64,000 nucleotides of DNA from Isoetes taiwanensis. Lineage: Eukaryota > Streptophyta > Lycopodiopsida > Isoetales > Isoetaceae. The stretch lies in NCBI GenBank assembly GCA_021234155.1, contig JAJEKV010000011.1, positions 14,795,255 through 14,859,254 of the forward strand, given 5' to 3'. The position numbers were made by a program, and so were the translations under genes. Within the stretch, counting starts at the first letter, position 1. Each line of letters starts with the position of its first letter. Positions 4,384 to 61,389 of this stretch are shown in pieces. The notes beneath the pieces are model-generated. The model did no database searches and was not told where the DNA came from. It worked only from the letters and a program-made list of their open reading frames with translations.

Positions 4384-4697
4384 TTGACTTGTTCATTTGC
4401 AAAAATAGTTTTTTATAACAACTGTGTGCTTTGATATGCATCCTTTTGGAATAAAATACAATCTCTCATGTGCCTTGTTGCAAGAGATTGCCTATTAAGC
4501 AAAGGTGACGTTTACATTATGAGATGCAATTTTTACAACACAACCTGTAGGCAACTTTTACAGTAATTCATGTCAAAGAAATCTATTCACCATACTTGTA
4601 AAATACTAAATAGAATGCCTCCAGTCCCAAACGACAGTAAACAAAGAAGGGGTCCAACCAAACACTTTAGTTTTATTTTATTGTCAATTCTGACAAT

Positions 4698-4902
4698 CAA
4701 CTAGAACTCACTCCTCTACAACTTTGAAACTCTGAGAAGTTGTCTCATAGGAAGTAAAGCAGAAAATATTACAGACATATACAAGAACTTACTCCTCCAG
4801 ATCTTTGAGAAGTTGTCTTATATATGAATACAGCAGAAAGTGGGACAGACAATATACAAGAGCTTACTCCTCCAGATCTTTGAGGAGTTGTCTTATATTT
4901 TG
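4698..4902. repeat. About 75-bp tandem repeat, about 2.5 copies
   Basis: Copies at about 4698-4785, 4786-4860 and 4861-4902 share ACTCCTCCAGATCTTTGA, GAAGTTGTCT and GACA.ATATACAAGA. The array abuts the 3' end of the minus-strand gene ending at 4920, so it may lie in that gene's 3' UTR or terminator region. Confidence 0.75.
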
Positions 4903-4919
4903 TACTTATCTAGCAAAAA

Positions 4920-5697
4920 TCAATGTGTAACAGCACGATTTAGAGATACCAGAAGTGCAGCCATACCGAAGACTACGAGAATGCTTCCAATTCTTTGTAT
5001 TGAATTATTTGCTTCTAAACTTTTGCTTGCCATAGCCACTGCTCCTAAGACTGGCTTCATTTCCACCATATGGTTCATCATAATCAAGAGACTAGCCTCA
5101 TCCATGCAGAACAAAGAATCATCTAGGAAACCATTTCTTTCCAAGTTATAACATGAAGTAGATAGAGTAGATCCCAAAGCTGAACAAGTTATGCAGCAAA
5201 TATGATTGGATGTTATATTACTTGGCAAGCTTTCTTGCAGCTGCAGACGGAAAATAGAGGCCGATTCGGCCATGCTTTTATCATGAGCATTTGCGATTTC
5301 TTTTAAAATCATGTCCACGTTGACAAGAACCATAAAAAAGGGATGCCTCCATCTTTCAGCTTCAGAAGCAAGATTTCTCTCTGATTCCTCAAATGTGTCA
5401 TTTGATACAATCACCAAAATATCATAGCTATAGAGCTGTTTAGTCTTGTAGTATTGGGCTGTGGAAGTATCATCAAGAACTTTGGGAAGAGAAATGTCCC
5501 AATACACAATGATGCCTTTAGTATCTGTTGCAAATAGGCGACGGTTAAAGGAAAGTAATCTACTAGTTTTTTTTTTCCTTTTAAGGATGAATGTATACAA
5601 CAACCTTACCTGTTATTCGCTTCATAGAAGCGATGAAGCTGCGTCTGCACTGATCGTTTCTGCCGCACACTGCAAGATTCATCTTGTGGGTAGCCAT
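4920..5697 (-). CDS. IRG-like pseudo-GTPase, third paralog (2 exons)
   Basis: Exon 1 runs 5697-5610 and exon 2 5524-4920, giving about 230 residues. The intron is GT-AG, phase 1, at the same position as in the two plus-strand paralogs. Exon 1 starts at an ATG in GCTATCTATGGCT and encodes KMNLAVCGRNDQCRRSFIA, the P-loop equivalent. Here the first Gly is kept but GK[ST] is CRR. Exon 2 carries IIVYWDISLP (G3 position), YSYDILVIVSNDTFEESE and FFMVLVNVDMIL (G4 position, a single Asp retained). The C-terminus has a hydrophobic tail (GSILVVFGMAALLVSL). It is convergent with the gene at 3511. Exon 1 is too short for a simple ORF scan and was found by matching the paralogs. Confidence 0.68.
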
Positions 5698-7663
5698 AGA
5701 TAGCTATGCCTTTCATCTGCATCCCTTTATTAAACGAGATCCCACGTTGGGCCGCCTTTGCAACGAGATCCCACGTCTGTTAGGGTAAACTATAAAGTAG
5801 TAGATCTGTATGATCTAATCCATCTTTTTGGATGTTTAAACCCTGAATCTTACCCAACATCTTTCTTTGAGTTTTTGAATCTTGCGTAACGAAATCTGAT
5901 CCTGGAACAAATCTAAACATCATGATAAAAGCCCATCACATCCTAAAAATGTGCTGTTTCGCGTTTATGTATGTCCTCTTGCGAAGGAAGGATCATGGCA
6001 TGTTAAAATCAGATATATCCGTGGTATATTATATCAGCACAGAATCATTTCAAAACCACGGTAAAAAGAAACGATTGAGAATAAAATTTCCAGCATTTAA
6101 GCTGGTCGTAATGACAAGGACCTTTGGATTACTGCAAATTTGCTTGTAAATTATAACCAAGAATTTTACCTCCACTAACTAGTTAACAAATTTTAAGTGC
6201 AGAATATTCATTTTTTAAGAATATACTGAATCGTTTTTTCCATGTATTATAGCGTTTGGTTCATCTTTTATTGCGTACCATCGATGTGGGGAATATTCCT
6301 GGCATTGTACCGGATCGGTGGCCCACATCATTTACAATTAAAGCCAGACAATTTTTTTCAATGGTGCACCTTGACCTCAATGGTCCAAAACCACAATATC
6401 ATTAAATGAAAGAAATTACATAAACCTTGGTAGACCGGATTTGCCACCATGGGTTGGCCTCATCTTCAATGAACAGAGGCTTGGAGGCCGGATTAAAGAA
6501 GGGATTTATGGAAAAAAAGAGCAGATGATCTGCAACAGAAGTAGAAGCCGTTCCCATGCCTTCCTACAACCTACAATTTCTCTGCCTTTGCAAACTGCCA
6601 ATCTCCTGTTTCTGCATTCAAATGCTCTGTTTTTCCATGAAAAAACCTTTCGTTCCCCTGTTCCGGATCACGAAGCCCATCACGAAGCTTTATAACAGGG
6701 CATTGATTTTCGGCTCAATTGGAATGTGACAGCCCATCACTAAGCTTTAAAACAGGGCATTGATTTTCCGCCCAACCCAATTGCAATATACAGCAGGCCA
6801 ATTCAACCAATTTGGATGACCAACACGAAAAATCATTATGCCCAAAGCAGAATGGGATTTTCTGCCTCAATCCCTGCAGAAACTTTAGCCCGATTTGGCT
6901 AATATTAGTCCGGATTTGGGGATAAGAAAGGAAAGACTGATCACAACTATTCTTCCCAGCATGTGACCCATCAGATACAAAAGAGAATCAAGCTTTGAAT
7001 AAGCCTCAAGAGATACCAGCAACAGAGATTTGGGTTAGCTCCACCGGCCAAGCAGGGGAGCAAAAGACGTCAGATCTGCTTGCAACATTTAGAAGATATT
7101 GCAGCGATGAAAATCGGCCCTGTAGATGTCGGATTGTGCAGCCGGATTCTCCCCTTCCTTCAAATTGGCCGATGTTATTTGTATCTGTGCTGACCTTTTC
7201 CTATCACCAAGAAGGCATCTGCGATTCCTTCTTCATGGTCGAAATAGCTCGACCTTACAGATAAAGGCCATGACCAGAAGACCTCCCTGGAAGCTCGCTG
7301 GGATCGCTTGGCATCCCACCGAAAAAAGAAAGCAGCGTGCAATCTCATCCGTGGCCTAAAAATTTGGCTGCGCAAAAATCTTAAAATAGCTTTTCTTTCA
7401 ACCATTACAAAAACATCCATGAAAAAGGGGAGTTAGAAAGCACCCAAAATAGCAATAACCACTCAAGCTCCTCCCACATGGCAAATTATACCCTTTTTTA
7501 TACAATACCATACGAAAATCATAGTCCTAACCACTGCCTGAAAACCCTCCCCCAACCCAAAACGAAATTAGCACAGTATATAGTTAACAAATTTTAAGTG
7601 CAGAATTTCACCTACATTAATTTCAAAAGTATGCTTCCAATAGAAAACCAAATGAAATATTTT
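5698..7663. other. Intergenic, with a 26-bp direct repeat pair
   Basis: No gene recognised; short frames at 6441-6695 and 6995-7360 have no known domain. TAGTTAACAAATTTTAAGTG plus the next six bases occurs at 6180-6205 and again at 7581-7606. The flank before copy one and the flank after copy two are also alike (AATTTTACCTCCACTAA and AATTTCACCTACATTAA), as expected if 1.4 kb was inserted or one copy of a tandem unit was split. Confidence 0.45.
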
Positions 7664-11062: not shown

Positions 11063-11876
11063 ATGGCACGGACGAAACAGACGCCCAAGAAGGTTATGCC
11101 ACCCGTTATGTGAGCTTCAGAGCGCAGCCGTCCGGCCCGTAAGGCCGACGGAGGCAAGTGCACATCGGGGAAGAGGAGGCACCGGGTTGAACCACCTAAC
11201 CCTAACCCCTCGAAGAGCAGGAAATGTATCGGAGAACCTTGATCGAGGCGACGCGCGAGAGAGCTGGAGGGAGTCAGCCGAGGGAGATCTTCGGGATAAT
11301 GAAGAACCACGCCAGAACCGGAAGAAGAAGAAGAGGGAAAGAGAAGAAGGCGAGCCGAGGAAATCCAAGGCGAGCGCCGGAGGGAAAAAAGAAGAGCCAA
11401 GAAAGAGGAGGGAGGAGAAGGAACGTAAGAGGGAAGAGAGGAGGAAGCGCAAAGAGGAGCCGGAGAGGGTGAGAGCAGAGAAGGGTAAGGACCCTGAAGT
11501 GCCGGAGAGAAGCCGAAGAAGAAGAAGACACCTACCATGGGGCAAGAACCATACAGAGCCGGATCCCCGAGAAGCCCCCCATCCCTCGCCGTCCGACCAA
11601 CCCGAGGAGGGAGCGGGAGGACACGAAACCAGAGAAACTTCGGCCCTTCAAACCCAATACCGGAGGAAGAAGACCCCGTGGCCAATGCAATCACCCTATC
11701 CTAAATGGCCGTCACGGGCACCCCAAATGACAAAGACCAAGAAACCAAGGCCGCAGAGGGAGTCCTATACCGAAGCTGGACTTGCGCATCGGAAGGAGCT
11801 TAAGGAGTATACTGCGTACATGAAAATGTATGAAGAATACTCCAAATACTACCCAGAGCCCCCTTCGCACGTTTAA
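11063..11876 (+). pseudogene. E3 ORF1: H3 N-terminal tail followed by a long basic region, frameshifted
   Basis: The ATG at 11,063 opens MARTKQTPKK. Its first seven residues are exactly those of histone H3 (MARTKQTARK...), including K4. A stop occurs at 11,111 after 16 residues. In another frame 15 bp later, ARKADGGK recalls the H3 ARKSTGGK segment. A third frame (11,187-11,876) continues open with Lys/Arg/Glu-rich sequence (KKKKREREEGEPRKSKA) to HRKELKEYTAYMKMYEEYSK. No H3 fold is seen downstream. It occupies the same place as the H3 ORFs of E1 and E2, so I read it as a decayed, rearranged copy of the captured gene. The charged region alone would not prove this; MARTKQT at an ATG makes chance unlikely. 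Confidence 0.55.
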
Positions 11877-12213
11877 CGAGGGAGATTTTGCAGGAGTTTG
11901 ACCCATCCAAATGGGTCACGGACGACATGTTGCTCGCGACCGGCAGAGGCGCTTGAGCAAAGACATCGTACACTACTGAAGACTCGCTATGCGTGCTCAA
12001 CACGCTTAAGAGAGTGACTTGCATGCCCAAGGATATTAGACTAGCTCAGTTTATTAAGAAGGAGGGCCCCTGAACTATTGTAAATGACCTTTTCTTTGGT
12101 ATAAGTCTATAATTTTGATAAATAAATAAGTCAAATCGAGTTTAAATAGGGTGTATTGCCGAATTCTACATTTAGAAATAGCAAAAATTCGGAACAAACC
12201 AGGCATTTTGATC

Positions 12214-35758: not shown

Positions 35759-36817
35759 TCAAACATGCTTCCGTATCAGAAGTTGCGTGGACTTCTGAAA
35801 TTTACGGATCTCCCGTAAGGCCACGGTACCGGGTCTATACCGGTGGGGCTTCCTTTGCGGAACAGGATTAGGAGGCGGCCCCTTGTGCCCCGGGATCGTC
35901 TTGGCCCCTACAACTGGACGGGGCCGAGAGGCATCCACCCGCTCCTGTCTCCGGCTGGAACTGGCGTTCTTCCCAAAGGCTCCGACAGTCTTCAACTTTT
36001 CCTTGTACTGGCTGCCGGACTTTCGGGCTACGGATTTCCTCCGGTGCTTAACGGTCGTATGCTCCGTTTGGTTTGGGCCCTGCCCACTCCCTGATCCCCC
36101 ATCGCCCTGCTGATCCGGCTGCTCTTGCCAGGCCTTCTCCTCCTTTTCCTTTTGGATCCTTTCCTGCTCCTCCTTGTACTCCCGAGCTCTCCTGAGGTCT
36201 TCTTCAATCTCATTGTATCGTCGCTCTACAATGCGGCGAAGGAGTTCGGCATGGTATCGATCGGGCCGCTGGTTCATATCAATCTGGATCGTCGTTAAAT
36301 AATCTATGCTAATGTCAGGAATCTCTCCCCACGTGAAGCTCTGAGAAGCTTCATGCCATTGGTATGGGGGAATCTCGATGGCCCTGCCATCTATAACGGC
36401 AACTCCATCTCCAAGATACCGGTATTCCCTACCTCGAGCCGCCGTATCGGCTCGCTCCACTTCCCTACGGTCATCCTCCCTGGCCAAGTTCTGAATGCGG
36501 TCGGCCTCTTTACTTATATCCTCCTCTTCAGTGTGGCCTTCACATTCGGGAGGGTAAAATTTTATTAGCATCATGACCAAGTCAGGTTGCTCGGCCATGG
36601 TGTAAGGAAGCTGTCGGAGATTCAGCATGACCAAAAATGGCTCCGAGTAATGGTAAATTGGATAGGGGATCCTATCGTTGTTCTCAAATCTGTTTACCAA
36701 CTCGTCCAAAAGTATATCTATCAAGGCAGGGTCAGTAGCCATGTGCCGGGCGATCAAAGCATAAATCTGGGCTATGGTAAGGGTAGTGGGGTCCACGGTG
36801 CTCTTGGTGTTGGCCAT
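35759..36817 (-). pseudogene. E1 ORF1: unknown domain fused to a truncated histone H3 domain
   Basis: An open frame of 352 residues starts at ATG 36,817 ([12 protein letters not shown]). Residues 1-240 are unknown, with an acidic and coiled part ([20 protein letters not shown]). A basic linker follows ([14 protein letters not shown]). Near residues 325-350 it reads [19 protein letters not shown] then TQLLIRK, the alphaN helix and start of alpha1 of histone H3. The rest of the fold is missing because the element is truncated. The N-terminal MANTKST shares M-A-x-T-K-x-T with H3 and with E3 MARTKQT, perhaps by descent. The frame is long and unbroken, so it may have coded for protein recently. 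No matching long N-terminal part is obvious in E2 ORF1, although [12 protein letters not shown] weakly recalls HPDYAAFLRFFH of E2 ORF2. Confidence 0.7.
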
Positions 36818-46697: not shown

Positions 46698-48487
46698 AAC
46701 CAGGTTAGACAGAGTACAGACGCCATAGCCAGGGCGGAGTATATTTGTAAACGCCACACCTCGCGTTAGGGAAAGTCCTATGAACAAACATATTGACTCA
46801 AAAGTTAGTCAGTCGAGAGGGCATTTCGCCCTCTTTCGATCCAAGACTTAACGAGTAATAAGTCTGTGCTTGGCCCCCTGATTTTCACAACATTTTTATT
46901 GCACTTGCAAGAGTTGAGAAGAGCATTTTTAACTCACCACAACTGAAAACGCGTGCCCAGCAATGTCCTTGTGTGTTACCTTAGCGCATTGATAAATGTT
47001 AGAATTTCATTATATGCCACAATATAGTAGGGGAGGGTGCCCATGAACCCGCCCTCTTAAGCGAAACAAGGTGCTGCACACGAAGGGTTGCCCTTCATGG
47101 CTGGAGGGTGAAGTGGCTTAAATCATAGTTCAAAGTCATGTTTTGACAATTAATTCAAATTGCTACTTCTAGACAATTAGAGTTGTGCAATTGTTTTTAA
47201 AAGCCTGGTTGTGGAATTCCAAAAAGGGCGTGGCCGTCCATTTTTTGCAACCTCTGTGTGCATGTTTTTCCCTGGCCTTACAGTTGGCGAGAGCCTGGCA
47301 GGGGCCGAGTTCTCAGGCGATTTTGGGCGACAGAGGGATGGCGGCTAAGCGGTCGGCCAACGCGTGGAGATCTGCAGGTGACCTGCAGATGGTTTCCGAA
47401 TTTGGTCAAGGGCGTGGAGATCTGCAGAGCCTCCATGTTTCCCACTTCTGGAAGAGCAGGGCAGCGATGGCAGAGAGCGCCTTATCAAGACGGGCTCCTG
47501 TAGATAGGATCTCTGCTTCAGATTTTTGCATGTCTGCTTCGGTTTTTTGCTCGGACGAGGAGGGACGCCCGGCTGAGAGTAGCTCAGCTGCTGCATGCAG
47601 GTCGATTAGGCTAGACTATGGCACATTTATTCACAAAACCAGCTTTGCTGAGTTGCCATGTGAGCTTTTTGTTTCTTTGAAAATCCGAGAGGAGGATGGG
47701 AAGGCGGAGAACAATGTTCTTGGACATGGTCTTGGAAGGAGATGTGGGCTTTAGCAGGATGCTGCTCTGAAGTTTTTGGAGCAGAATGGGAAGCAACAAA
47801 AAAGGCAAAGGTGAACAGAAATGAAGAATTGTGTTGTACTGCAGAGGCAGAACATCCTTCTTCATGCACGCCGCTTTCATCGTGGCAGGAAACAGAGGAT
47901 TGCTACCTTGGGCTACACGATTACAAGAATGCTCTCAAGTCGTGCTTACACATTGTCAATGGCACTTAAATTGTGAATTAGGCTGCTTCATAGCTAAGAA
48001 GATGTAACGAAGAACCTGGGTTATGAATGGATGTAAATTATAAATAGGGTGCTATGTGCATATATATGGGAATGGGAAGCTATGTACGCATATGGAAAGC
48101 CATTTATTGTTGTTTTGCAAAGGACCTTTCCCTAGAATATACTGTCTATTGAATGTGGATTATGGTTGTAATGTGGATTTCGATTGTCTGTTATTGGCTA
48201 CCTGTTGCATCTGCACAATACATGTTGCTCCTTGATTTCATTGAATGACACGTGTACGGCTCACAATTTAATTCCAAGGCCCATGGTTTATTGTGTGGCT
48301 CACGTTTTTTTAAATTTTTTTTATGAACCCATTAGAGTTATGAACCCATAATTACTTCTAGACAATAGAATACTTGAGAAAGAGGTGATATCTCTTGCAA
48401 TTGACATTGTACTAGAGATAAAATATGGAAGATTGTAAACTAGAACCATGCCACTATTTTAGGCAATGGATGTTGCAAATCTATGAG
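46698..48487. other. Promoter side of the SDR gene, hairpin repeat copy e, unassigned ORF
   Basis: GGCTATGGCG (minus) lies at 46,721-46,730. The hairpin repeat GAAGGGTTGCCCTTC is at 47,082-47,096 within the block 47,063-47,148 shared with 13,646-13,728. An open frame at 47,185-47,754 (+) of 189 residues contains RSANAWRSAGDLQMVSEFGQ; no domain is recognised and it may be chance. Confidence 0.35.
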
Positions 48488-50158
48488 TGTGACGCTCCCT
48501 GAACATATACGACCCTCGGACGTATACATACGGGGATTTTCCCCTCCCATGGCGACCAACTCACCATGAGCAGGGCCCTCCGTCTAACTCGGGCCATCTA
48601 TAAGAAGACGCTCCAGTGAAGGACACATAGGGGTCATTCGGCCCACGCCTTCAATGGGGCTCCTACGTCGCGGAAGCGTGAATACAAAGTTAGCACACAG
48701 CATAATCATATCACAATTTACCACCACGAGGGGTGGCACATCCATCCAAGTGACAACAACAAAGAATATGCATCTAATACTAAGGAAAACACCCCAAACC
48801 CATGGTTCTACCCCGGCTCAGACTCCAGTGAGGATCGACTGACGGCTAGGTCTCAAGAGATCGCTGAATCGAATCTTAACATGGCGCTATCGGCATAGAA
48901 CATCGGCTAGGGTTGTCCACTCCATCCCCCTCCCCGCACACACTTTGCGGATGAGTCGAATCATGCTATGGCATCACTATAGCCTTCCAGACATGCAGAC
49001 TCAAGGTATCACCCTACGAGCCTACTACAGGGTTCATGAAGCCCCGTCCGATGAGGCAGGTCGGGGAGGCGTCCCCTTCCAGGATCACAGGGTTCCATGG
49101 GTGAGCTAGAGAATACGTGCCGCATCAGCGACCCCCGCATTCGTACCCGACTTACTCACCCTAAATCTACTCAAAGTGCAAGATGCTCCATACGGATCAC
49201 ACCTCTACACCCAGGGAGTGTCGGACCCATACCCGCCCCTCTACGGGACCTCCATCGCCTAGCCCACTGTAGGAGTCTCAGGAGCCTTTTATGTTCGTGC
49301 AAGACCCCACCCCCACTTCACCATCTTGGTCCCTTTGTTTGGTGCTAAGCCATTCCATAGCATCCACGACTCGGTGGTCTCTTGTGCACAGGCCGCATAT
49401 AATGGGAATATTACAGGGCTCTATCTAGGAGCATACTATCATACATGAGCTCAGAGGTCTCTACCCCCCTTATTTCCCCCATTTCCAGAGTAATACTATG
49501 CAAAGAACTATCAATCCATCCTTTAAGAGCAAAACCAGAATCAGAATATAAAGAGAACTTACCTTTACAATCAAGGGTTAGCTCCTACGAGTAAAACACA
49601 GAGAGAACAAACAAAACCACACAACAAGTGCCCAAAAGGGGCGCTACCCTAGAATATCAGCCTATACTAGCCACCTATCTGAGTTCCTGCTGGACCCGTT
49701 ATCGTTTGGCGCTTCCATCTTCCTGGGACTTGACGTTTAGCTCTGGCCACACAGGTACGTGCTAGGCAAGGGTGGCGCTCAGCTGGGTGAAGGTGGCGCT
49801 CAGGTTGGCAAAGGTAGGTAGGCGCTCAGCTCCTCAAAGGTGGCGCTCAACTCCTCTTGTTCGATTATGGCTGATATGGGGGGTGGTGATCCACCTTGAT
49901 GGCTTCAATTAGCATCACCATGTTAGCCAATCGATTTTGGCCAGGTGGCGCCTTCCCAAACCATAATTAACTTAATTATTCCTTTTAAATATTAATTCCT
50001 TAATTATAGGTTATTATCCATAATAATTAAATTAGCATAGCTAATTTAATCCCTTTAGGTCAACCCCCTAGGTTACCATACCCCATGGTGGCGTATCTAT
50101 ACTGGGTGACGTGTCAATATATTTATACGTATACCGTATAAATACTTGGAACGTCACA
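48488..50158 (-). repeat. E2 3' LTR
   Basis: 1671 bp, TGTGACGTTCCAAG...GGGAGCGTCACA on the minus strand. The start contains a palindrome (TTTATACGGTATACGTATAAA) between TGACGT and ACGTCA motifs. It pairs with 59,735-61,384. The 62-codon frame it contains (48,654-48,842) is present identically in the other LTR and is not considered a gene. Confidence 0.92.
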
Positions 50159-50171
50159 TTCTCCCCTCCTT
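50159..50171 (-). other. E2 polypurine tract
   Basis: AAGGAGGGGAGAA on the minus strand directly abuts the 3' LTR, the expected primer for second-strand synthesis. Confidence 0.85.
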
Positions 50172-50728
50172 AGAATTAATGCTGGGGTTAGATACAAATG
50201 TAGTAAATGACATTATGAAGGAAGAGAATTCCTTATTTCAGAAGATAATATATTAAAACTTCAAAGTTTAAAACATTGAAGTGCAGTTCACATGATTATC
50301 ATAAGCAACAAGTTCAAGGACCGAAGTCCAATATCAAATAGCAGGGTAACAATAAGGAACTACATGTAAACACCATGAAAACTGGAAAAGTCGGGCCATC
50401 AGCAACCCTCTATACATGGGCGGTGACGATCGCTCACCGGGCCCGCATTATGTCAATATGTCAGTTTATATAGATAAAATAATTAGGTTGTGGTTGAAGG
50501 GTCCACCCCCTATAAGAAATAAAAGAAAATTTATCTACAAGGAACTTATCATGCCTATGGTTTGCAATTCATTGCGGCGTAAGGAATGGTCAAGTTCCTA
50601 TTATAGCCAAGATGAATGCGGCTATGAACTACATGCTTTACAAGCGGTTCATGGTCGTGTCCACATTGACAAGACACCACGCCCTAAGGAACACGAAGGT
50701 GATCCCATCATCGGTGAATCGTTGTTAA
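50172..50728. other. E2 segment between pol and polypurine tract
   Basis: No recognisable coding on the minus strand. A 128-codon plus-strand frame (50,416-50,802) runs antisense into pol and has no domain. Confidence 0.4.
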
Positions 50729-53700
50729 CTACGATGCATCTACCCCTCTCGCCTGATTCTCGTGAATCAAGCCTTCAAGCTTACCGGCCGGGGCGGGGTT
50801 GATAGCATCGTTGATGGTGCGGCCTTGAGATTCGCGCATGAAGTCCGGATAGTGCTTCTCAAGGTCTGTTTCCATCACCCACGTAGCATCCTCCACTGGC
50901 AAGTGTTTCCACTTGACCAAGTATTGCAGCATCTGGGTCCTCCGAGTCTGCTTATATGCTCGATCAAGAAGAGCTTCAGGCACTATATCCAATTGCTCTT
51001 CTGTCATTTCAAGTAGGGTGTGTGTATCCAAGATCTCCTCTGGATCTGGGGTGTGCTGCTTTAGAAGACTGACATGAAAGACCTTGTGGATCTTCAGACG
51101 GGGTGGCAAGTCCAGGCGATATGCCTGTTCCCCAACACGTTCAGTGATCTTGAACGGGCCAGCCCATCTAGGGGCCAACTTCTTGCAGTTACCAATTTTA
51201 AGCTTGGCTTGTTTCACCTTAATCTTAAGCCAAACTGATTCACCCATCTGGAAGATTCGTGGGGTTCTGTGCTTATTTGCTACACTCTTTTGACGACTGC
51301 GTGCGGCTAATAGGTACCCACGTACTTCGTCAACCAAAGCTTGCATTTCTAGGAGGAGTTGCTGAGAAACCTCCACTTTAGAAACGGGGTTATGCCATGT
51401 GTCTGGAGTAAGGCATTGATAACCATAATTTATCATGAAGGGAGACATTCTGGAAGACTCCTGTTTCATGCTGTTGTAGGCAAACTCGACCAGATAAATA
51501 TAGTCAGCCCATTGTGATTGCTTACTCCACACATAACTTCTTAGCATATCCTCTATGATGCGATTTGTACGCTCCATCTGACCATCTGTCTGAGGATGAT
51601 ATGCTGTACTCATGGCAAGCTTGGTCTGGATAGTAGCAAAGAAATCTTTCCAGAAAGCACTTACAAATTTGGGATCCCTGTCAGATACAATAACTCGTGG
51701 CATTCCATGCAACCTGAAGATGGCGGTGTCCGTGGTACGACATGGCAAGAAATGAGCCATTTTCGACAACTTGTCGACCACTACCATTAACGCATCATAG
51801 CCACGAAGAGTACGGGGAAGGCCTACAATGAAATCTATGGTTATGTCCCACTTAGCATTGGGCACATCCAACGGTTGTAACTCTCCTGGGATCCTTAGTT
51901 GCTCCGCCTTGGTTTGTTGACACACTTGACACTGCTTAATGTACCTGGCAATGTCCTTCTTCATCGAAGGCCAAAAATAACTGGAGCGGATCTTAAAGTA
52001 GGTCTTCATAAAACCTGCATGTCCAGCTATAGGGCTGTTGTGCGTGTCATGGAGAATCAGCTTACGTACTCCTGAAGTCTCAGGTACACACAACTTATCC
52101 TTGTAATATAACAAGGTGCCCTCTTTCTTATACGAACGGAAAGCTTCGCGCTCTTTATCTGTGCGAGCCTCCTTAGCCAAACTATCCCACACATCACAGA
52201 ACTCGGGATCCGTGGCCAAGGTTTGTTCTATCTGTTTCCCAAACTCACTAGTGAGTGTAGAAATTGCATTACAATGGGTTCGGGTTACTAAGGGATGGCG
52301 TGACAATGCATCCGCAACCACATTGTGCTTCCCAGGCTTATACATAATCTCAAAGTCATACTCCTCCAGAAATTCCATCCATCTTCTCTGACGGAGATTG
52401 AGATTTGGCTGGGTGGATAAGTAACGGAGACTCTGATGATCCGTATCCAGCTGGAATCTTCTACCAAGAAGGTAGTGTCTCCATATCCGCAGAGCACGGA
52501 CAACTGCTAACAATTCCTGATCATGAGTAAGGTATCGCTGCTCTGTTTCGTTCATTTTCGTTGAATCGTAGGCAATAACCCTCCCCTCCTGCATTAGGAC
52601 TCCCCCAGTAGCAATCTTACTGGCATCTGTTGCCACTAGCTTATCCTTTTCAGGGTCGGGTAATGTAAGGACTGGTGCTGACGTTAAAGCATCTTTAAGC
52701 TGCTGGAAGCTTCCCTGAACCTTTGCTTTCCAATGCTCAATCCAATCCTTTACCTTCTCATGCTTTGTAAGATTAGTAAGAGGTGCTGCAATCTTTGCAA
52801 AATCCTTAACAAATTTCCGATAATATCCGGCTAGTCCTAAGAAACTTCGGACCTCGGAAACATTACCTGGAATAGGCCATTCCCTTACTGCCTCTATCTT
52901 GGTTGGATCTGTCGCAATTCCTTCTGCTGAAATAACATGTCCCAAATAATCCACCTTCGGAGCGGCAAACTTGCACTTAGAGAACTTGGCAAAGAGCTAG
53001 TGACGTCTTAGCTTTTCCAAGGCCAACCGAAGATGTTTCTCATGCTCCTCCAGGGTTTTACTATAGATGAAAATGTCGTCAAAGAAAATAACAACAAAAT
53101 CATCCAAGTATTGTCGGAAGACATCATTCATTAACCGCATAAACGTTGCGGCGGCATTAGTTAATCCAAAAGGCATAACGGTAAACTCATAATGCCCATA
53201 TCTAGTGCGAAAGGCAGATTTATGAATGTCCTCCTCCTTAATCCTTATTTGATGATATCTGGAGCGTAAATCAATCTTTGAGAAATGCTTGGCCCCTTGC
53301 AACTGGTTCATTAGATCATCTGCCCTAGGCAAAGCATAGCGATTCTTAATGGTGTGCTTATTGAGCTGCCTATAGTCAATACACATCCTCAAGGAGCCAT
53401 CCTTTTTCTTAACAAAAAGGATAGGAGCGCCAAAAGGCGAAACACTAGGCCGAATGAAGCCTAAGTTTAGTAACTCCTGAAGTTGCTTCTTAAGCTCTAC
53501 CAACTCAGGGGGACTCATACGGTACGGGGCCTTACTGGTAGGCTTAGTACCTGGTTCCAAAGCTATCTCACATTCTACCCCTCTAAAAGGAGGAAGTTTC
53601 TGGATCTCGTCTGGAAAAAGATCGCTAAATTCTCGGAGAAGATTGGCAATCCCTTCCGGCAAGGTATCAACTACTTGCTTCTGCTTGGCATCTGATTCAA

Positions 53701-54112
53701 TGGAGGCAAGTCTAATAATGCAAAGCAACTTATCTTTACGTATAGCCTTATCTAACTGCCTGATGGTGATAGACTGCATAATGGGGTTTAAGGAGTCACC
53801 TTTTATAGTTACGCGGGCTCCGTTAGCGGCGTTGAAGGTAACTTCCCATTTCTCGCAGTCTATATTGGCTTTTGCAGATGCCAAGAATTCCATACCAACA
53901 ATAAGATCATATTTGCCAATATCCATTATCTCGGCACCCATGGCAACTGGTGCACCTGGCAACTGCATCTTAAGGTTAATGTGGCGGCCATGCGTATGTC
54001 TGATCTTACCATTGGCTAAAGTAACAGGCTTCGGTCGAGATCTCAAAGTTTCAAGCCGCAATACCTGGGCCATTCTAGGAGAAGCAAAATTATGTGTACT
54101 ACCCGTATCCAT
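50729..54112 (-). pseudogene. E2 pol: protease, reverse transcriptase, RNase H, integrase, chromodomain
   Basis: From the 5' side: retropepsin motif DTGSTHNF at the start; RT with [29 protein letters not shown] and the catalytic FFDD near 53,085; RNase H with [17 protein letters not shown] and NVVADALSR; integrase with the HHCC zinc finger (ending CQVCQ), catalytic Asp in WDITIDF and VSDRDPKF, and [14 protein letters not shown]-terminal chromodomain [17 protein letters not shown]. The chromodomain assigns it to chromoviruses. Lesions: one in-frame TAG at 52,994-52,996 at the end of RT, a Gly-to-Arg change in the RT DLRSxYHQI motif, and about ten residues missing in frame between the first and second integrase Asp. 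Otherwise one frame throughout (the apparent start at 52,954 is only the first start-like codon after the stop). Confidence 0.92.
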
Positions 54113-54319
54113 CAGAATTATAAAAGGTTTGCTGTCTACTTGACCTATGGTGGAAATAACGGCGGTGACTTTCAGCAGATGTCGGTTTCAATAGCCGCAA
54201 GGATATGGGACTCACCGCGGAATGTATTCGGGAGCCTCCTCCTCGACAGGTAGAGTCGACTCGAGATCGTCCCAATCGAGGTCGGCCATGGCCAGCTGGG
54301 CAGTCTGTGTGACATAAGG

Positions 54320-55455
54320 GCAATTCTGCATGAAGTGTCCGGGGCGCATACACATGTAGCATGCCTTATCTCGGCGTAACTGGTCTCGGGCCTCTTTGGG
54401 AATAGACTGTAAGAGGTTCCAAACTTCCTTGCCGACGTTGTTTGGTTTTGTCGGGCATGTTAAAGGTGACTTTCCTTTCCCCGGGCGTCGTTGGAGTTCT
54501 CACGAGAGAGCCCCGACTTGGTGAGCCGGGTTTTGTAAGGTGTGGACTCGGGCGTGGGGCTGCGTAGTAAGGAGCGGGACGCGGATCTTGGTTCCTTGGT
54601 GTGTCCTCCTCGAGGCTCAATGCCTTAGCCTCGGCCTCTGCCCATCGATTTTGGGTCTATGGCCTTAACCATTCGCTTTAATGGGCCGGGGCCAATCCTT
54701 CGATGTAACCCTCCACGACCCTCTTTTCATTCATCCCCGGTACATACAAACCTCAAGCGCATGAACTCATCGGTGTAGGCCTGAACCGACATACCCTTAC
54801 GCTCTAACCCGTAAAAGGTCTGAATTTGTCGGCATTTGTGCGCACGCGAGGCACATAATGCGACTTTAAAAGCTTTGGCAAACTTTTTGAACTTGCATCC
54901 GCTACGTCCCGGATGCTTGGCTCGCATAGCCCTTCCACCAAATGCGGCAGCTCTCGTAAGGTTTGTGGTGGCAACCTTTCCTGTATCCTTTTCTGTCATG
55001 CCATAGGATTTCCCAAACTCCTTCATTTCGTCCAGCCAGGACTCTGCATTCAGGCTGCCCCTAGATTTCCCATCAAACTGGGCCAGTTTCCTGTTTTTCC
55101 ATATACTGGTTATGGCCGTATCAACCGTCTTACGGTATTCCTTGTCGCGGCGCTTGGGGTGCTCTCCCGATGATACGGACGACTCAGAGGTGGCTGATTG
55201 TGAAGAGGTGGCACTATCCCTTGAGGAACTTCGATGACGTTTGGAACGGTGCTTCCTTCGTGCGGGTACAGGGCTTGGTTCAGGTGCAAGTGGCTGCTGG
55301 GGTGGTGGGCTTGGCGGCAACGGAGGTAACTCCGGTCCATCCTCATGTACGTGTTGTGGTGGATTGGCATTCAACACATGAGTTTGTAACTCGACTAATT
55401 GCCTCTTCATCAATAAGTTCCTGACTGGCATTCGAAGGTGTCTGCCAGGCGGCAT
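54320..55455 (-). pseudogene. E2 gag with CCHC zinc knuckle, frameshifted
   Basis: ATG at 55,455 (MPPGRHLRMP). A proline-rich and then Ser/Arg-rich N-terminus (SKRHRSSSRDSATSS) is followed by a capsid-like segment (FDGKSRGSLNAESWLDEMKE). The first frame stops at 54,727. Continuations are in other frames at 54,620-54,366 and then ACYMCMRPGHFMQNCPY (54,365-54,318), a C-x2-C-x4-H-x4-C knuckle that binds nucleic acid. At least two frameshifts and a stop before protease mean gag is broken in this copy. Confidence 0.82.
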
Positions 55456-55713
55456 TGCATGCACCGTCTATATTGAGTATAAGAAGGTATAAGCAGAGTT
55501 ACAGTGACATCAAGTCTCACAAAGAATGTCATATCGGATAGTATTTAGAGAAAGTAGGTAGAAAAGTACAACAGAAAAGGTTTTTATTATCAGAGTCATT
55601 ACATCGAAAGTCACTTACAACTTAAAGTTATATATCACAGGGTTAAACACTTTACATTACACAATTTTTCCAAGTTACACAAAACATAGGAAGCAGAATT
55701 GAATGGATCAGGC

Positions 55714-56200
55714 CTAAGGGTTCGCGAAAGGATACAAGATGGAGTAGCGAACGCTCTCGCATACGGCTCTCACTAACTTGTAGCGAGCCCAGGCTTGGAC
55801 AATAACAGGTTGATAATCCAGTGTTGGGCTAATGATAAGGAGATTGAAGAGCCTCCTTAATGCATAGAAAATCTGCCAGAGGTGATCATTGGCATCCTCA
55901 AAAGCTTCGTGCCTTGACATGTCCCAATAGTCCCATGTGCGACGAAGAGTCTGCTTCAGGTCGTCAAAGGCCCGCTCCCTGAGAATGTTAACTACCTCCA
56001 TCCCCTTGGCTGGATCATAGGGCTCTCCTGGCTGTGCGGGTTCCCCTTCCTCGTAATCTTCGTCCCATTCCGGGTACTCCCCATACCTTTGGCCATAATC
56101 CTGGTCGGGCGGTCCTGGATCATCCCTCCGTATGTGGTCGGTAATTCGTTCCTCATATTCTTCGAGCGTCTCGTCTGCAAGACGGTAGGGATGAATATAG
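55714..56200 (-). pseudogene. E2 ORF3, C-terminal part, unknown
   Basis: About 160 residues: LADETLEEYEERITDHIRRD, an acidic Tyr-rich stretch (YGEYPEWDEDYEEGEPA), then a helical-looking end (AWARYKLVRAVCESVRY). The frame runs further upstream, but that part (to 56,385) is unlike coding sequence and lies in an insertion with a SINE-like head. ORF3 may therefore originally have been continuous with the end of ORF2 near 56,780. No family is recognised. Confidence 0.5.
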
Positions 56201-56776
56201 AACATTGAACAATGTTTCTTACACTCTAACTCTAATAGATAGAAGGACGCATCATGGAAGAGAATAATTTTGATCGTACTCATTGATACAATAATCAATA
56301 TGTAGCAAAATAACAGGGGGTTCCAGGGGGATTTCATATAGATATAATTCTTGAAACCATAGACCATATCCCTAAAACAATTCAATGGGTTATTATAAAA
56401 AAAAACATAGATTTAAGATAAAAAATAGTCACATTAGCTCACTGGTTAGATTGGTTAAAGTAGTCTTATTAGGACATTGAGTTATTTTGGTAGAGGTTCG
56501 AATCCCCGTATTTCATATTCTAAAAGCTTAAGCGAAACCGTATAGAGGCTCGATATACCATCAAAACCTTAGGCAAACTCGTATTCGACATCTTAAAATC
56601 ATAGGCGTCCCCAATCATAATTGAGCATAATCGAAACGAGAGGTGTCCAGAGGCTCCAACATACAGTCTGGGCCGTCGGATTGACAGATCCGACGACTGT
56701 GGTAGTCCGGGTGCACCTCGTTTAGAATATGTAGCTAAAGAGTATGCCAAAGCAAAATTTTACAACTATACGCAAT
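56200..56776 (+). mobile_element. Probable tRNA-derived SINE insertion inside E2
   Basis: TAGCTCACTGGTTAGATTGG (56,435-56,454) matches a tRNA A-box region, and AGAGGTTCGAATCCCC (56,492-56,507) is a B-box 45 bp later, as in a Pol III promoter. Coding on the minus strand is lost on both sides of it. Exact ends and target duplication were not found. Confidence 0.5.
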
Positions 56777-58175
56777 TCAAAATGCATAATACAAATATTT
56801 AAGAACTAGGTCCCTCCTCTTCGTCCATAGGCTGAGGAAGTGGACGGTAGCGCACAAGGTGGCACTGGGGCTAGCAGAGAGGGCGGCTCGAGCTGCTGCC
56901 TTGGGTGGTAAGCAAGTGGCTAAAGGTGCCGCCACAAGAAGTCGCATATTAGTGCAGCCCGCCACGTCCCCCAATGCTGCTATAGCCAAATCCCTACGGA
57001 CCAAAGTAATAGTGGTGGCGTGATAATCAATCTTCTTATGGCCCGCTGAAGTGGATATGGCTCGGAGCGCCCACCAAGAAGTTGCAGAAGAAGGCCCTAG
57101 GTTCTTGGAGAAGAACAACACCTCTCCTTGCCAAAAGGCTGAGAGAAAGAACCGGGGCACATGGTTTCCCATTGCCCTAATCTGAGGATCTCTGGAGGTC
57201 TCCGCTTCCTTTTCCAAGTTCACGGGGATCTCCTCCTCCTCTTCGTCTTCCTTGTCATCCCTAAGGCTGACCTTGGTGTCCCAAAGGTCTTCCTCGTCCT
57301 GATCCACCTCTCCCATGGTGATTTGCAAGGGCGGGTCTGCGAGAGGGGGCCGTAACTGGGCCGCTCTGGAGGCTGTGGTGTGTCACTCAATAAGAACCGT
57401 CGAAGTGACAAAAGAGTCTCAACGGGCTCTTGTTCTTCGGGCTGATATGCCAATAAGTGCTCGACTGGTGAGGGATTCACAACCGGTGTGGTAAAATCGA
57501 TGAAGTCATCTTGGAATACTCAGCAAGGTCATAAAGGACCTCTATCTTCTTGCGGCGGATCCCAGTAATGACGCGGTAAGCCCACATAATGTCCTCAAAA
57601 ATCAGGTACTCTTGGTTATTCACGAGTACTGTAGGAAGAAGGTTTAGCCCTTCGAGCTTGAGAGCTTTCTGTCGACTGGCAGGGGCTTCGGTGGCAAGTT
57701 CCTTCCACCTTACAAAATCCTGCTCGTCGACGACTTCGTCGTCTTCTGGGTCAGGAGGTACAGGCGTAGAGGAATGCTCAGCAGCTATCTCCTCATCCTC
57801 AATATACTGGTCCATGATGATGGCCAGTGCAAATCGGGCCTCAAAACAAGTTTCCCGATCTATTGTAACAATAGGGAGGTCAGTCCCTCGCCTCCTTATG
57901 CCCTTGATGACATTCCGGGCGTGCTCATCATCTCCTAACATCTCAAGCAAAGTGTGGGAGTCGAGATAGAGTTGGGTGTCGTCTTCATTGGATATGCAAG
58001 CAGGTACAATCTCCTCATGGAAAAACCGAAGGAAGGCAGCATAGTCTGGGTGCACCTGCATGTTGGAGACGAGGTCTACCTGCTGGAGAAGATAAGGGTG
58101 AAGAAGATCAAAGGGAACCGCGGGGTCCCAATGCTCTCCATCCAAATACCACTGCTGCAAGGTTGGGCGAGCCAT
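56777..58175 (-). pseudogene. E2 ORF2, unknown accessory protein, two frame changes
   Basis: ATG at 58,175 (MARPTLQQWYLDGEHWD). The first frame to 57,477 encodes HPDYAAFLRFFHEEIVP, RETCFEARFALAIIMDQYI, an acidic patch and NLLPTVLVNNQEYLIFEDIM. Reading continues in a second frame (to about 57,350; VEHLLAYQPEEQEPVETLLS) and a third (57,316-56,777; GEVDQDEEDLWDTKVSLRDD, then NHVPRFFLSAFWQGEVLFFS). Together about 460 residues if once one protein, or two proteins. Its N-terminus is related to that of E3 ORF2 (12,981), so it is a conserved family gene. No known domain. Confidence 0.6.
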
Positions 58176-58249
58176 GAGGGTTGAAGGCGCAAGGGAGGAG
58201 AAAGGAGGCGCTGAGAGCAAGAAAGAAAAGTAAAACCCTCATGGCCAAA

Positions 58250-58275
58250 AAGGACTTTATACTTTTTGGCACGTT
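58250..58275 (-). promoter_or_regulatory. TATA-like element before E2 ORF2
   Basis: AAAAGTATAAAGTCC on the minus strand lies about 85 bp upstream of the ORF2 ATG. This parallels the TATA box before ORF2 in E3 and supports independent transcription of the accessory ORF. Confidence 0.35.
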
Positions 58276-58475
58276 TCCCAAAATTATTATTAAAAATAAT
58301 TATTTAATTAATAATTTATTTTTTTTTCACACCAAGTGGCAGGAAAAAAAAACATTTTTATATTGACAACTTCAAAATTTGGAATACTTTACATAGACAA
58401 GTGCACAAAAATCTTTACAACAGAAAGAAGATAGTCGCCTAGTCACCGAAACTCCCCTCGGATCCTTCGTACTAG

Positions 58476-59126
58476 CTAGAGGTCTTTGGGCATGATGGTG
58501 ACCCTCTTTGCATGTACGGCACAGAGGTTGGCGTCGCTCAAAATCTCGATGAGGTAAGCCTCGGCAGCCTCCTGAAGTGCGAGGATTGCAAAGGCTTGGA
58601 ACCTCAGATCAGTTTTAAAATCCTGGGCAATTTCCCGTACAAGCCGCTGAAAAGGGAGCCGACGAATAAATGGCTCAGTTGACTTCTGATACTTACGTAT
58701 CTCCCGAAGTGCTACCGTGCCCGGTCGGTATCGATGGAGCTTTCGCGGCTTGAGGGTCGCCTTCAGCGATGGGAGGGATTTCCCACCTGTTGTTGGATGC
58801 TTTGCCCGCTGGACGATCTGCTCACGTCTCTGGGCCGATGTCTTCTTGGCGATGGCGGCATTCTTTTGTAATCGGGTCTTGTAACCTACACCTCCCTTAA
58901 CGGGTTTGGTGTTCTTTCTCTTCAACGTCCTGTTGCCCCACTCCGTAGCCTTCCTATTCTTGGCCCCGCCCTGCTCCACAGGTTGATCTTGTTGCTGGCC
59001 AACAGTTGGATCCACCGTTTTGTTGATGTTCTGGTCAACGTTTTGATCCCCCTGTTGATCAACAGGCTGGTTTTGGCCGTCCTCTGCTTCCTTACGGAGC
59101 CCCTCCTCTACATCACCCCCTAACAT
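58476..59126 (-). CDS. E2 ORF1: histone H3-like protein with novel N-terminal tail
   Basis: 216 residues from ATG 59,126, unbroken. Residues 1-60 are Gln/Asp-rich with repeated DQN/QQ phrases ([20 protein letters not shown]). Residues about 60-130 are very basic ([30 protein letters not shown]) and include [15 protein letters not shown], faintly like the H3 tail STGGKAPRKQLATKA. Residues about 130-216 are a histone H3 fold: [19 protein letters not shown] (alphaN), [20 protein letters not shown] (alpha1, loop 1), [20 protein letters not shown] (alpha2, loop 2), [12 protein letters not shown] (alpha3 start). It ends where canonical H3 continues with QLARRIRGERA. Loop 1 has no insertion, so it derives from ordinary H3 rather than CENH3. 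It is the first ORF after the primer site. It could form or mimic nucleosomes; no function is shown. Confidence 0.9.
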
Positions 59127-59721
59127 CTGGTGCAGGGTGTGAAGGAAGGTCGGCTATGGCGGGAACAGAGCTCGGGTCCGGCGGCTATGGCGGAGAAGGT
59201 CGCCCAGAAGAAACACGCTTTAAAAAGTAACTTAAATTTGAATTCCAACGTTCACTTTTTATTTAATTTTTTTTTAATTTTTTTTTCTTAAATTTCAAAC
59301 AGGCGCGTATAAAAGTACGCGCGACCGTATGGGGCGCTGCGTTACTTATACGGCCTCCGAGGACTTATACTTTTTGAAATAAACACCTCCGAGGACAGCA
59401 GCGCCCCTTTCGATTTCTCGGCGGCCTGTTGTCTTTTTGACCTCGGGAGACGTGCCCCTTAGGGTATTTGGAAGGTGCCCGATCCATTGGAGCCGTTTTC
59501 GCCTTCATCCGAGCTACCTACAAAAAGTTATGGCCCTTCCAAACTTGGGTCTTCCAGTCGCCCTAAACTTCTTAAGATCTTACATCCTATTACATTAACC
59601 TAGCACAAAACCAAACATCAGAGAGCCAAACAACCACACTAGCTTAAACTCTCTCTCCTGACTACCGAACTAGCGAGTTAAGGTTTGGTCAGTGCTATGA
59701 TTTCGAGTAACCGAAATCACG
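59127..59721 (-). other. E2 leader
   Basis: Untranslated region between primer site and ORF1. It has two copies of GGCTATGGCG (plus-strand 59,152 and 59,183), an A/T-rich stretch near 59,260-59,290, and the block shared with the E1 leader at 59,460-59,705. Confidence 0.7.
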
Positions 59722-59733
59722 GCTCTGATACCA
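59722..59733 (-). other. E2 primer-binding site (tRNA-iMet)
   Basis: TGGTATCAGAGC on the minus strand, one base from the LTR end. This is the standard initiator-methionine tRNA site of many plant LTR retrotransposons. Confidence 0.95.
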
Positions 59734-59734
59734 C

Positions 59735-61384
59735 TGTGATGCTCCCTGAACATATACGACCCTCGGACGTATACATACGGGGACTTTCCCCTCCCATGGC
59801 GACCAACTCACCATGAGCAGGGCCCTCCGTCTAACTCGGGCCATCTATAAGAAGACGCTCCAGTGAAGGACACAGAGGGGTCATTCGGCCCACGCCTTCA
59901 ATGGGGCTCCTACGTCGCGGAAGCGTGAATACAAAGTTAGCACACAGCATAATCATATCACAATTTACCACCACGAGGGGTGGCACATCCATCCAAGTGA
60001 CAACAACAAAGAATATGCATCTAATACTAAGGAAAACACCCCAAACCCATGGTTCTACCCCGGCTCAGACTCCAGTGAGGATCGACTGACGGCTAGGTCT
60101 CAAGAGATCAGCAGACCGAATCTTAACATGGCGTTGGCTGGCATAGAACATCGGCTTCCATCCGCCCCTCCTGTGCACACTTTGCAGATGAGTCGAATCA
60201 TGCTATGGCATCACTATAGCCTTCCGGACACGCAGACTCAAGGTATCACCCTACGAGCCTAATACAGGGTTCATGAAGCCCCGTCCGATGAGGCAGGTCG
60301 GGGAGGCGTCCCCTTCCAGGATCACAGGGTTCCATGGGTGAGCTAGAGAATACGTGCCGCATCAGCGACCCCCGCATCCGTACCCGACTTACTCACCCTA
60401 AATCTACTCAAAGTGCAAGATGCTCCATACGGATCACACCTCTACACCCGTGGGAGTGTCGGACCCATACCCGCCCTCACGTGACCCAGCTGTCGCCTAG
60501 CCCACTTTGTAGGAGTCTCGGGAGCCTTTTATGTTCGTGCAAGACCCCTCCCCCACTTCACCACTGTGTCCCTTGTTTGGTGCTAAGCCATTCCATAGCA
60601 TCCACGACTCGGTGGTCTCTTGTGCACAGGCCGCATATAATGGGAATATTACAGGGCTCTATCTAGGAGCATACTATCATACATGAGCTCAGAGGTCTCT
60701 ACCCCTTTATTTCCCCATTTCGAGTAATACTATGCAAAGAACTATCAATCCATCCTTTAAGAGCAAAACCCGAATCGAATATAAAGAGAACTTACCTTTA
60801 CAATCAAGGGTTAGCTCCTACGAGTAAAACACAGAGAGAACAAACAAAACCACACAACAAGTGCCCAAAAGGGGCTACCCTAGAATATCACCTATACTAG
60901 CCACCTACACGAAGTTCTTGTTGGACCCGTTATCGCTTTGGCTTCCATCTTCCCCGACTTGACGCTTTAGCTCACGGCTACAGTGCGTGCTAGGCAAGGG
61001 TGGCTTCCACCGGGTGAAGGTGGCGCCGAGTTGGCAAAGGTAGGTAGGCGCTCAGCTCCTCAAAGGTGGCGCTCAACTCCTCTTGGTCGATTATGGCTGA
61101 TATGGGGGGTGGTGATCCACCTTGATGGCTTCAATTAGCATCACCATGTTAGCCAATCGATTTTGGCCAGGTGGCGCCTTCCCAAACCATAATTAACTTA
61201 ATTATCCCTTTTAAATATTAATTCCTTAATTATAGGTTATTATCCATAATAATTAAATTAGCATAGCTAATTTAATCCCTTTAGGTCAACCCCCTAGCTT
61301 ACCATACCCCATGGTAGCGTATCTATACTGGGTGACGTGTCAATATATTTATACGTATACCGTATAAATACTTGGAACGTCACA
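59735..61384 (-). repeat. E2 5' LTR
   Basis: 1650 bp, TG...CA. It differs from the 3' LTR by scattered substitutions and several small indels (for example around 60,105-60,185 and 60,890-61,025). Confidence 0.93.
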
Positions 61385-61389
61385 ATGAG

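What the first reader, a model, noticed from the sequence alone, without database searches (positions are those of the whole stretch)
48488..61384. A complete chromovirus that carries a histone H3 gene
E2 has every structural mark of one inserted Ty3/gypsy element: paired LTRs, 5-bp ATGAG duplication, iMet primer site, polypurine tract, gag, pol with chromodomain. Between primer site and gag it carries an unbroken 216-codon ORF with a nearly full histone H3 fold. I know of no described LTR retrotransposon family with a histone gene as a standard component.
Basis: partly seen in the sequence, partly recalled or inferred. Interest (0 to 1): 0.95.

Follow-up and report, generated by a model that had tools for sequence, protein, structure and literature searches.

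The report
Quillwort retrotransposons carrying their own histone
A large family of jumping genes in what is very likely a quillwort plant carries, as one of its regular genes, its own version of histone H3, the protein that DNA is wrapped around, with the usual regulatory tail replaced by something else.

Summary
E2 (48488-61384, minus strand) is a structurally complete Ty3/gypsy insertion with an H3 ORF (59126-58476) between primer site and gag. The feature is family-wide in this genome (1.658 Gb; size matches Isoetes taiwanensis): 150 of 150 scored matches at 68-100% identity, E2 included, of 8105 candidates. Of 20 copies fetched around H3 hits, 14 have gag downstream; of 8 fetched upstream of stop-free pol copies, 5 have H3. 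Six H3-bearing copies have paired LTRs and 5-bp duplications. In 14 of the 20 an N-domain precedes the H3; seven read as one protein of 428-452 aa: new domain, acidic linker, basic tail unlike the H3 tail, whole H3 fold. Three subfamilies share this, with synonymous sites near saturation and H3 conserved (dN/dS 0.08; pol 0.04-0.07). E2 is decayed: no N-domain, and its H3 stops about 11 residues early. I think the element makes a nucleosome-competent H3 variant that puts its own domain on chromatin; that is inferred. Precedent: a fungal hAT DNA transposon with an H3-like gene. My word searches of open papers showed none for LTR elements.

The parts
59735..61384 (-). 5' LTR of E2 (element runs on the minus strand)
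   Evidence: 94.6% identical to 48488-50158; TG...CA ends, K2P 0.057
48488..50158 (-). 3' LTR of E2
48483..48487 (.). target-site duplication ATGAG, low-coordinate side
61385..61389 (.). target-site duplication ATGAG, high-coordinate side
59721..59733 (-). primer-binding site TGGTATCAGAGCC (initiator-Met type; type named from recall)
   Evidence: read; the same motif in 10 of 20 other copies
50159..50171 (-). polypurine tract AAGGAGGGGAGAA
58476..59126 (-). ORF1: acidic Gln/Asp linker, basic tail and H3 fold; lacks the N-domain of other subfamilies and stops about 11 residues early
   Evidence: Pfam Histone 7.3e-37; PDB H3 1.7e-44; comparison with copies
57477..58220 (-). ORF2, family-conserved acidic protein of unknown kind; about 462 aa in the longest copies seen, shortened here
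   Evidence: no Pfam match; in 13 of 20 copies; dN/dS 0.10 over 9 copies
55714..56385 (-). ORF3, family-conserved acidic ORF of unknown kind (conserved part about 55717-56235)
   Evidence: no significant Pfam match; in 13 of 20 copies; dN/dS 0.065 over 12 copies
54727..55464 (-). gag remnant
   Evidence: weak Ty3_capsid here, E 0.08; the homologous frame in L036 gives Ty3_capsid 6e-16, Retrotrans_gag 5e-15 and weak zinc-knuckle matches, E 0.01-0.02
52997..54112 (-). pol: protease and reverse transcriptase
   Evidence: RVT_1 4.6e-30, RVP_2 5e-7
50729..52954 (-). pol: RNase H, integrase, chromodomain
   Evidence: RT_RNaseH 1e-31, Integrase_H2C2 2e-20, Chromo 2e-9
50837..50983 (-). chromodomain; appears to lack aromatic residues at the first and last cage positions
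   Evidence: cage positions placed by eye, from the description in PMC6317226 (passages) and recall
35759..36817 (-). E1: truncated copy of a divergent subfamily, N-domain plus H3 tail and start of the H3 fold
   Evidence: complete relative L048
37361..37545 (-). leader of E1, 77% identical to the leader of E2 just inside the primer site

Best explanation
This is a lineage of chromodomain-bearing Ty3/gypsy LTR retrotransposons that once captured a host histone H3 gene, fused it behind a ~215 aa domain and a new basic tail, and has kept the fusion as a regular gene between primer site and gag through a long history of copying. Shown: presence across many copies and three subfamilies, position, shared origin of tail plus H3, purifying selection comparable to that on pol. 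Inferred: the protein enters nucleosomes as an H3 variant, because the whole fold including the C-terminal helix is conserved. It would place an element-specific tail and N-domain on chromatin, most likely the element's own DNA, where the missing H3 tail could not receive the usual repressive lysine methylation, or could serve as an address for the element's proteins. The element would gain escape from silencing or a self-made docking site.
For: Family-wide: 150 of 150 scored matches (E2 included), 68-100% identity, 109 of 150 without a stop in the matched stretch by my count of the table. Of 20 H3-centred loci, N-domain in 14, gag in 14, exact primer site in 10. H3 in 5 of 8 pol-centred windows. 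17 of 60 pol places, E2's own included, have a listed H3 hit upstream on the same strand; none downstream or on the other strand. Six H3-bearing copies with LTR pairs at K2P 0.018-0.051 and 5-bp duplications. H3 C-terminus ending RGEFR in 17 of 20. dN/dS: H3 core 0.079, tail 0.12, RT 0.064, INT 0.040. Between subfamilies pS 0.78-1.0 and pN 0.09-0.12 in the H3 core. Tail homologous between subfamilies (0 of 2000 shuffles reach the score) but not detectably to the canonical H3 tail.
Against: No expression, chromatin or protein data were available, so nucleosome entry and the benefit are inference. The host's own H3 genes could not be searched (genome search did not complete), so the donor gene is not identified and no tree with it exists. 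The two structure models are too poor to use (mean pLDDT 46 and 30). Not every copy has everything: 6 of 20 lack gag and 10 of 20 lack a close RT within the fetched stretch, 6 of 20 lack the N-domain, and 3 of 8 pol-first windows show no H3. The 20 copies were taken from the best H3 matches and the 8 from stop-free pol copies, which favours conserved copies; the dN/dS values are pairwise, not by branch. H3 core (0.079) is slightly less constrained than the pol domains (0.040-0.069).
Confidence: 0.55

Rival explanations
1. Passenger capture: the H3 is a transduced host gene carried along by the element without use.
For: Plant LTR elements do transduce genes (PMC7264820, first of three parts of the text); E2's own H3 is broken and its N-domain lost.
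Against: dN/dS 0.079 over 20 copies, near that of pol; near-saturated synonymous sites with pN only 0.09-0.12 between three subfamilies; H3 C-terminus kept in 17 of 20. A passenger would have decayed over that distance.
Confidence: 0.06
2. Decoy or chaperone trap: the protein binds H4 and the host's H3 chaperones instead of entering nucleosomes, hindering chromatin assembly on new element cDNA.
For: The fold is conserved while substitutions cluster at about 101-107, a stretch that I recall as near chaperone contacts; the linker, ORF2 and ORF3 are acidic.
Against: The C-terminal helix, which I recall as the H3-H3' nucleosome interface, is conserved too, more than a decoy would need.
Confidence: 0.15
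3. Packaging or tethering protein: the basic tail and H3 fold condense element RNA or cDNA, or tether the integration complex to host chromatin, acting inside the particle or pre-integration complex.
For: Tail net charge +16 over 63 residues in one copy; position before gag; N-domain under constraint, dN/dS 0.19.
Against: Gag has weak zinc-knuckle matches of its own; keeping an almost canonical H3 fold is more than nucleic-acid binding needs.
Confidence: 0.15
4. Repeated capture: different subfamilies took H3 from the host independently.
For: L044 and L048 H3 are nearer to canonical H3 (84 of 95 and 85 of 96 residues) than the E2 type is (77-83 of 95-96 in complete copies).
Against: All three types share the non-canonical tail, an N-domain (30-36% between types; E1 39% to P0121), the position, and T107A; I124L is in all copies covering it but L040.
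Confidence: 0.06
5. Assembly artefact or a host gene that the element landed beside.
For: None found.
Against: Independent insertions with separate target duplications carry H3 inside their LTRs.
Confidence: 0.01

Closest known systems
H3L-bearing hAT DNA transposon of Pyrenophora tritici-repentis (PMC3538342; passages read)
   Same: A mobile element with an H3-like gene as a regular component, plus an ORF of unknown function.
   Different: DNA transposon with terminal inverted repeats, in a fungus, 10 long and 16 short very similar copies; here an LTR retrotransposon, divergent subfamilies, a fused N-domain and signs of long-term selection.
Orchid Ty3/gypsy elements with a 2-ODD m6A demethylase ORF (PMC9289625; passages read)
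   Same: Plant Ty3/gypsy family that captured a host-type gene and kept it through diversification.
   Different: RNA demethylase instead of a histone; giant elements that the passages compare with Ogre.
Plant chromoviruses (PMC6317226; passages read)
   Same: Ty3/gypsy gag-pol with a chromodomain; LTR, primer site and polypurine tract.
   Different: The passages I read list no histone among the domains surveyed; clade membership was not tested here.
Bdelloid LTR retrotransposons with captured ORF3s (PMC5408684; passages read)
   Same: LTR elements with enzyme or other ORFs added and kept by lineage.
   Different: Extra ORFs called ORF3; 'histone' occurs 0 times in that text.

Membership tests
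Chromovirus (Ty3/gypsy with chromodomain) | PR-RT-RH-INT order with integrase after RNase H | tested here: met
   E2; copies
Chromovirus (Ty3/gypsy with chromodomain) | chromodomain at the integrase C-terminus | tested here: met
   Chromo 1.9e-9; homologous stretch in 9 of 20 other copies
Chromovirus (Ty3/gypsy with chromodomain) | aromatic cage for methylated H3K9 (type I chromodomain; present in some clades only) | tested here: inconclusive
   by eye, the first and last cage positions are not aromatic in E2 and in the 9 aligned copies, as described for type II (PMC6317226); no alignment to a reference chromodomain was made
Chromovirus (Ty3/gypsy with chromodomain) | placement in a named clade (CRM, Tekay, Reina, Galadriel, Tcn1, Chlamyvir) | not tested
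   no reference tree was built
LTR retrotransposon | paired LTRs with TG...CA, primer site, polypurine tract, 5-bp target duplication | tested here: met
   E2. Six further copies: LTR pairs and 5-bp duplications (one with a mismatch), exact primer site in 5 of 6; polypurine tract not examined there
Histone H3 | core histone fold, H3 type | tested here: met
   Pfam 1.5e-42 (P0121); PDB H3 chains
Histone H3 | canonical ARTKQTARKS tail | tested here: not met
   no similarity above shuffles for three element tails
Histone H3 | incorporation into nucleosomes | not testable with these tools
   needs protein work
Centromeric H3 (CENH3) | divergent core with longer loop 1 | tested here: not met
   core aligns without internal gaps and is about 81-89% identical to canonical H3 in copies covering it; the loop 1 criterion is from recall

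The most novel reading that the evidence does not exclude
The element makes its own private nucleosome mark: its H3 variant is laid on element chromatin, its tail cannot be silenced by host H3K9 or K27 methylation, and the element's own chromodomain integrase, which seems to lack the usual methyl-lysine cage, or the H3-borne N-domain reads that mark, giving a self-addressing retrotransposon with a built-in epigenetic label.
Probability: 0.15. Interest if true: 0.97.

Novelty: new variant of a known kind. Interest (0 to 1): 0.9.

Why it matters
Host silencing of transposons acts largely through histone H3 tails. A retrotransposon lineage that has carried its own H3, with that tail replaced, under selection comparable to that on its polymerase, makes it directly testable whether mobile elements can alter the nucleosome itself. 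Together with the fungal hAT case it suggests that H3 has been taken up by unrelated transposon classes. It also gives a natural set of H3 variants with a long N-terminal fusion.

Tried and rejected
Tried without result: N-terminal extension of E2 against 5.8 billion proteins (24 candidates, none at E<=0.01); N-domain of one copy likewise (450 candidates, none); full ORF search, where only the 7980 candidates sharing most words were scored and the best 120 listed; the seven of these that I read were tandem canonical H3s. Viral contigs with H3, pol and E1 (none for H3 and pol, one short H3-like match L012 for E1, not followed); bacterial genome contigs gave 11 loci in MAG records, ten of them matching the H3 part, which I take for eukaryotic contamination and did not follow. 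Structure models of the N-domain-H3 protein and ORF2 are too poor for a fold search, so none was run. A spliced-RNA origin for copies lacking ORF2/ORF3 was considered and dropped: four share the left break (ruler position 2126) but the right breaks are 4550 twice, 4445 and 4470. Rejected: misassembly; disfavoured: passenger capture, repeated capture; CENH3 not met (see rivals and membership). The search for the host's own H3 genes (first, last) and the genome search with P0121 (first, last) did not complete. My notebook holds rougher counts for (N-domain 15, gag 15?, pol about 13); the recounted figures here are 14, 14 and 10.
Full report
What is in the window. On the minus strand, 61384-48488 is one inserted LTR retrotransposon. 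The LTRs (59735-61384 and 48488-50158) are 94.6% identical, differ by K2P 0.057, begin TG and end CA, and are flanked by ATGAG on both sides; AAGGAGGGGAGAA precedes the 3' LTR. TGGTATCAGAGCC follows the 5' LTR after one base. Pfam finds protease, RT, RNase H, integrase and a chromodomain. gag is weak here (Ty3_capsid E 0.08) but clear in another copy, L036, as Ty3_capsid and Retrotrans_gag, with weak zinc-knuckle matches, in one 989-aa frame with protease and RT. The 216-codon ORF at 59126-58476 is an H3: Pfam Histone 7.3e-37, best solved chain 1.7e-44. It ends early, about 11 residues before the end that most fetched copies reach. This copy is complete in structure and decayed in its genes.

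Host. The window lies in an assembly of 1,658,258,908 bases in 1110 contigs. The published Isoetes taiwanensis assembly is 1658.30 Mb in 204 scaffolds plus 909 contigs (PMC8566536, passages). The identification is an inference from this near match. The word histone occurs 0 times in the main text of that paper and 0 times in that of the I. sinensis genome paper (PMC10541799, passages).

Is it a standard component? A whole-genome search with the ORF gave 8105 first-look candidates; 150 were scored and all 150, E2 itself included, matched with E below 1e-74 at 68-100% identity, 109 without a stop in the matched stretch by my count of the table. I fetched 10 kb around 20 of the 150; H3 is there by choice. 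Of the 20: N-domain in 14, exact primer site in 10, ORF2 in 13, ORF3 in 13, gag in 14, a close RT in 10, plus two with an RT of only 35-40% identity that I take for other elements. From the other side, the 60 scored places nearest to E2's pol (of 44770 first-look candidates) were compared with the 150 H3 places: 99 and the other 51. Of the 60, 17 (E2's own included) have a listed H3 upstream on the same strand within 15 kb: fourteen at 2.8-3.3 or 5.1-5.2 kb, E2 at 5.5 kb, one at 8.4 and one at 13.7 kb. None has one within 15 kb downstream or upstream on the opposite strand. Of the other 43 pol places I took 8, all without a stop in pol, and fetched 4 kb upstream: H3 in 5, ORF2 or ORF3 alone in 2, nothing in 1. 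In one of the five (L050) the H3 is broken and in another (L049) only part of it is there. Six H3-bearing copies have LTR pairs with K2P 0.051, 0.035, 0.018, 0.025, 0.029 and 0.024 in the longest aligned piece; reading the flanks printed, five have a perfect 5-bp duplication and one has a single mismatch; the exact primer site is present in 5 of 6.

What the protein is. Seven of the 20 loci read as one frame of 428-452 codons from a start codon: an N-domain of about 215 residues, an acidic Asp/Gln-rich linker, a basic tail and the H3 fold (net charges -12 and +16 for linker and tail in L039). E2 and its nearest relatives (L021-L025) lack the N-domain, as does L028. E1, at 36817-35759 in the same window, is a truncated copy of a second subfamily: its leader is 77% identical to E2's and a complete relative with about 413 codons is L048. 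L044 is a third type. The H3 C-terminus RGEFR is present in 17 of 20; L028 is cut short and L032 and L033 end differently. The core has no internal gap against canonical H3 in the alignments. The E2 type typically carries P60, R64, A86-F87, I89, changes at 101-105 and A107; T107A is in every copy that covers the site in all three types, and I124L in all but L040 (numbering from recall). The pre-fold tail is alike between the three types (0 of 2000 shuffles reach the score) and not detectably like the canonical H3 tail. The usual K4, K9 and K27 contexts are therefore absent. The N-domain of L039 and E2's own extension found no relatives among 5.8 billion proteins at E 0.01; that search needs shared 5-residue words.

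Selection. Pairwise dN/dS over copies: H3 core 0.079 (20 copies), tail 0.122 (21), ORF2 0.102 (9), ORF3 0.065 (12), gag 0.131 (11), RT 0.064 (8), RNase H 0.052 (10), integrase 0.040 (6), chromodomain 0.069 (9). The pool was 21 (E2 and the 20 loci); copies whose match covered under 80% of the query or fell under 60% identity were dropped by the script before each count. An earlier run gave 0.083 for the H3 core over 171 pairs and 0.19 for the N-domain over 66 pairs. In seven pairs that I chose, five of them between subfamilies, the H3 core has pS 0.78-1.0 and pN 0.09-0.12 between subfamilies, and pS 0.50-0.53, pN 0.03 within the E2 type, while the seven insertions with both LTRs in hand are at most 0.057 apart in their LTRs. 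Most of the divergence thus arose while the gene was being copied and selected. E1 and E2 share 25 H3 codons with pS 0.97 and pN 0.09. The sample favours conserved copies and the estimates are pairwise, not by branch.

How it may work. Shown: an H3 fold kept whole, a replaced tail, a fused domain, a regular place in the element, constraint near that of pol. Inferred: nucleosome entry, and use on the element's own chromatin to escape tail-based silencing or to provide a docking site. By eye the integrase chromodomain lacks aromatic residues at the first and last cage positions in E2 and in the 9 other copies aligned, the type whose partner is described as unidentified in PMC6317226 (passages). 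This leaves open, without evidence, that it reads the element's own H3. ORF2 (net -33) and ORF3 (net -17) of L039 are acidic; a histone-handling role would be a guess.

What is known. Word searches for histone-bearing retrotransposons and for extra ORFs and gene capture showed no LTR element with a histone gene in the titles and abstract starts listed: 20 of 96, 20 of 23, 15 of 959, 0, 0, 15 of 94 and 7 of 7 papers. They cover open-access PMC papers only, so a description elsewhere or under other words is possible. The nearest case is the fungal hAT transposon with H3L (PMC3538342, passages; the only paper). The review of additional ORFs in plant LTR elements has the word histone 0 times in its main text (PMC7264820; first of three parts read).

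Limits. The host H3 genes could not be searched, so donor and tree are open. No expression data. Both structure models are unusable. Copy number is bounded only by 150 scored and 8105 candidates, which may include host H3 genes. Other Isoetes or lycophyte genomes were not searched.

Noticed in passing
window 11063-12064 (+): Decayed H3-like piece with a canonical-looking start (MARTKQTPKK, E 0.005) and an H3-like C-terminal half (E 2.7e-10; both E-values for a 2.2-kb subject), unlike the element H3; in between lies a 229-aa charged ORF in another frame. Possibly a host H3 pseudogene or a divergent variant.
   Followed up: partly
window 1154-5603: Three ORFs with matches to interferon-inducible GTPase (IIGP, Pfam E 3e-4, 1.7e-6, 5.7e-6), which I did not expect in a plant.
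   Followed up: no
L024, L025, L037, L038 (oriented, just after H3): Copies that lack ORF2 and ORF3 share the left break point in the H3 3' region but not all the right one; H3 then runs straight into gag-pol.
   Followed up: partly
L036 oriented 4606-7572 and pol places: In L036 one 989-aa frame runs from gag to RNase H; open frames of up to 1639 aa surround pol in other copies, their gag content not checked.
   Followed up: no
L001-L010 (bacterial MAG records): H3-like genes or pieces in contigs filed under bacterial MAGs, probably eukaryotic contamination.
   Followed up: no
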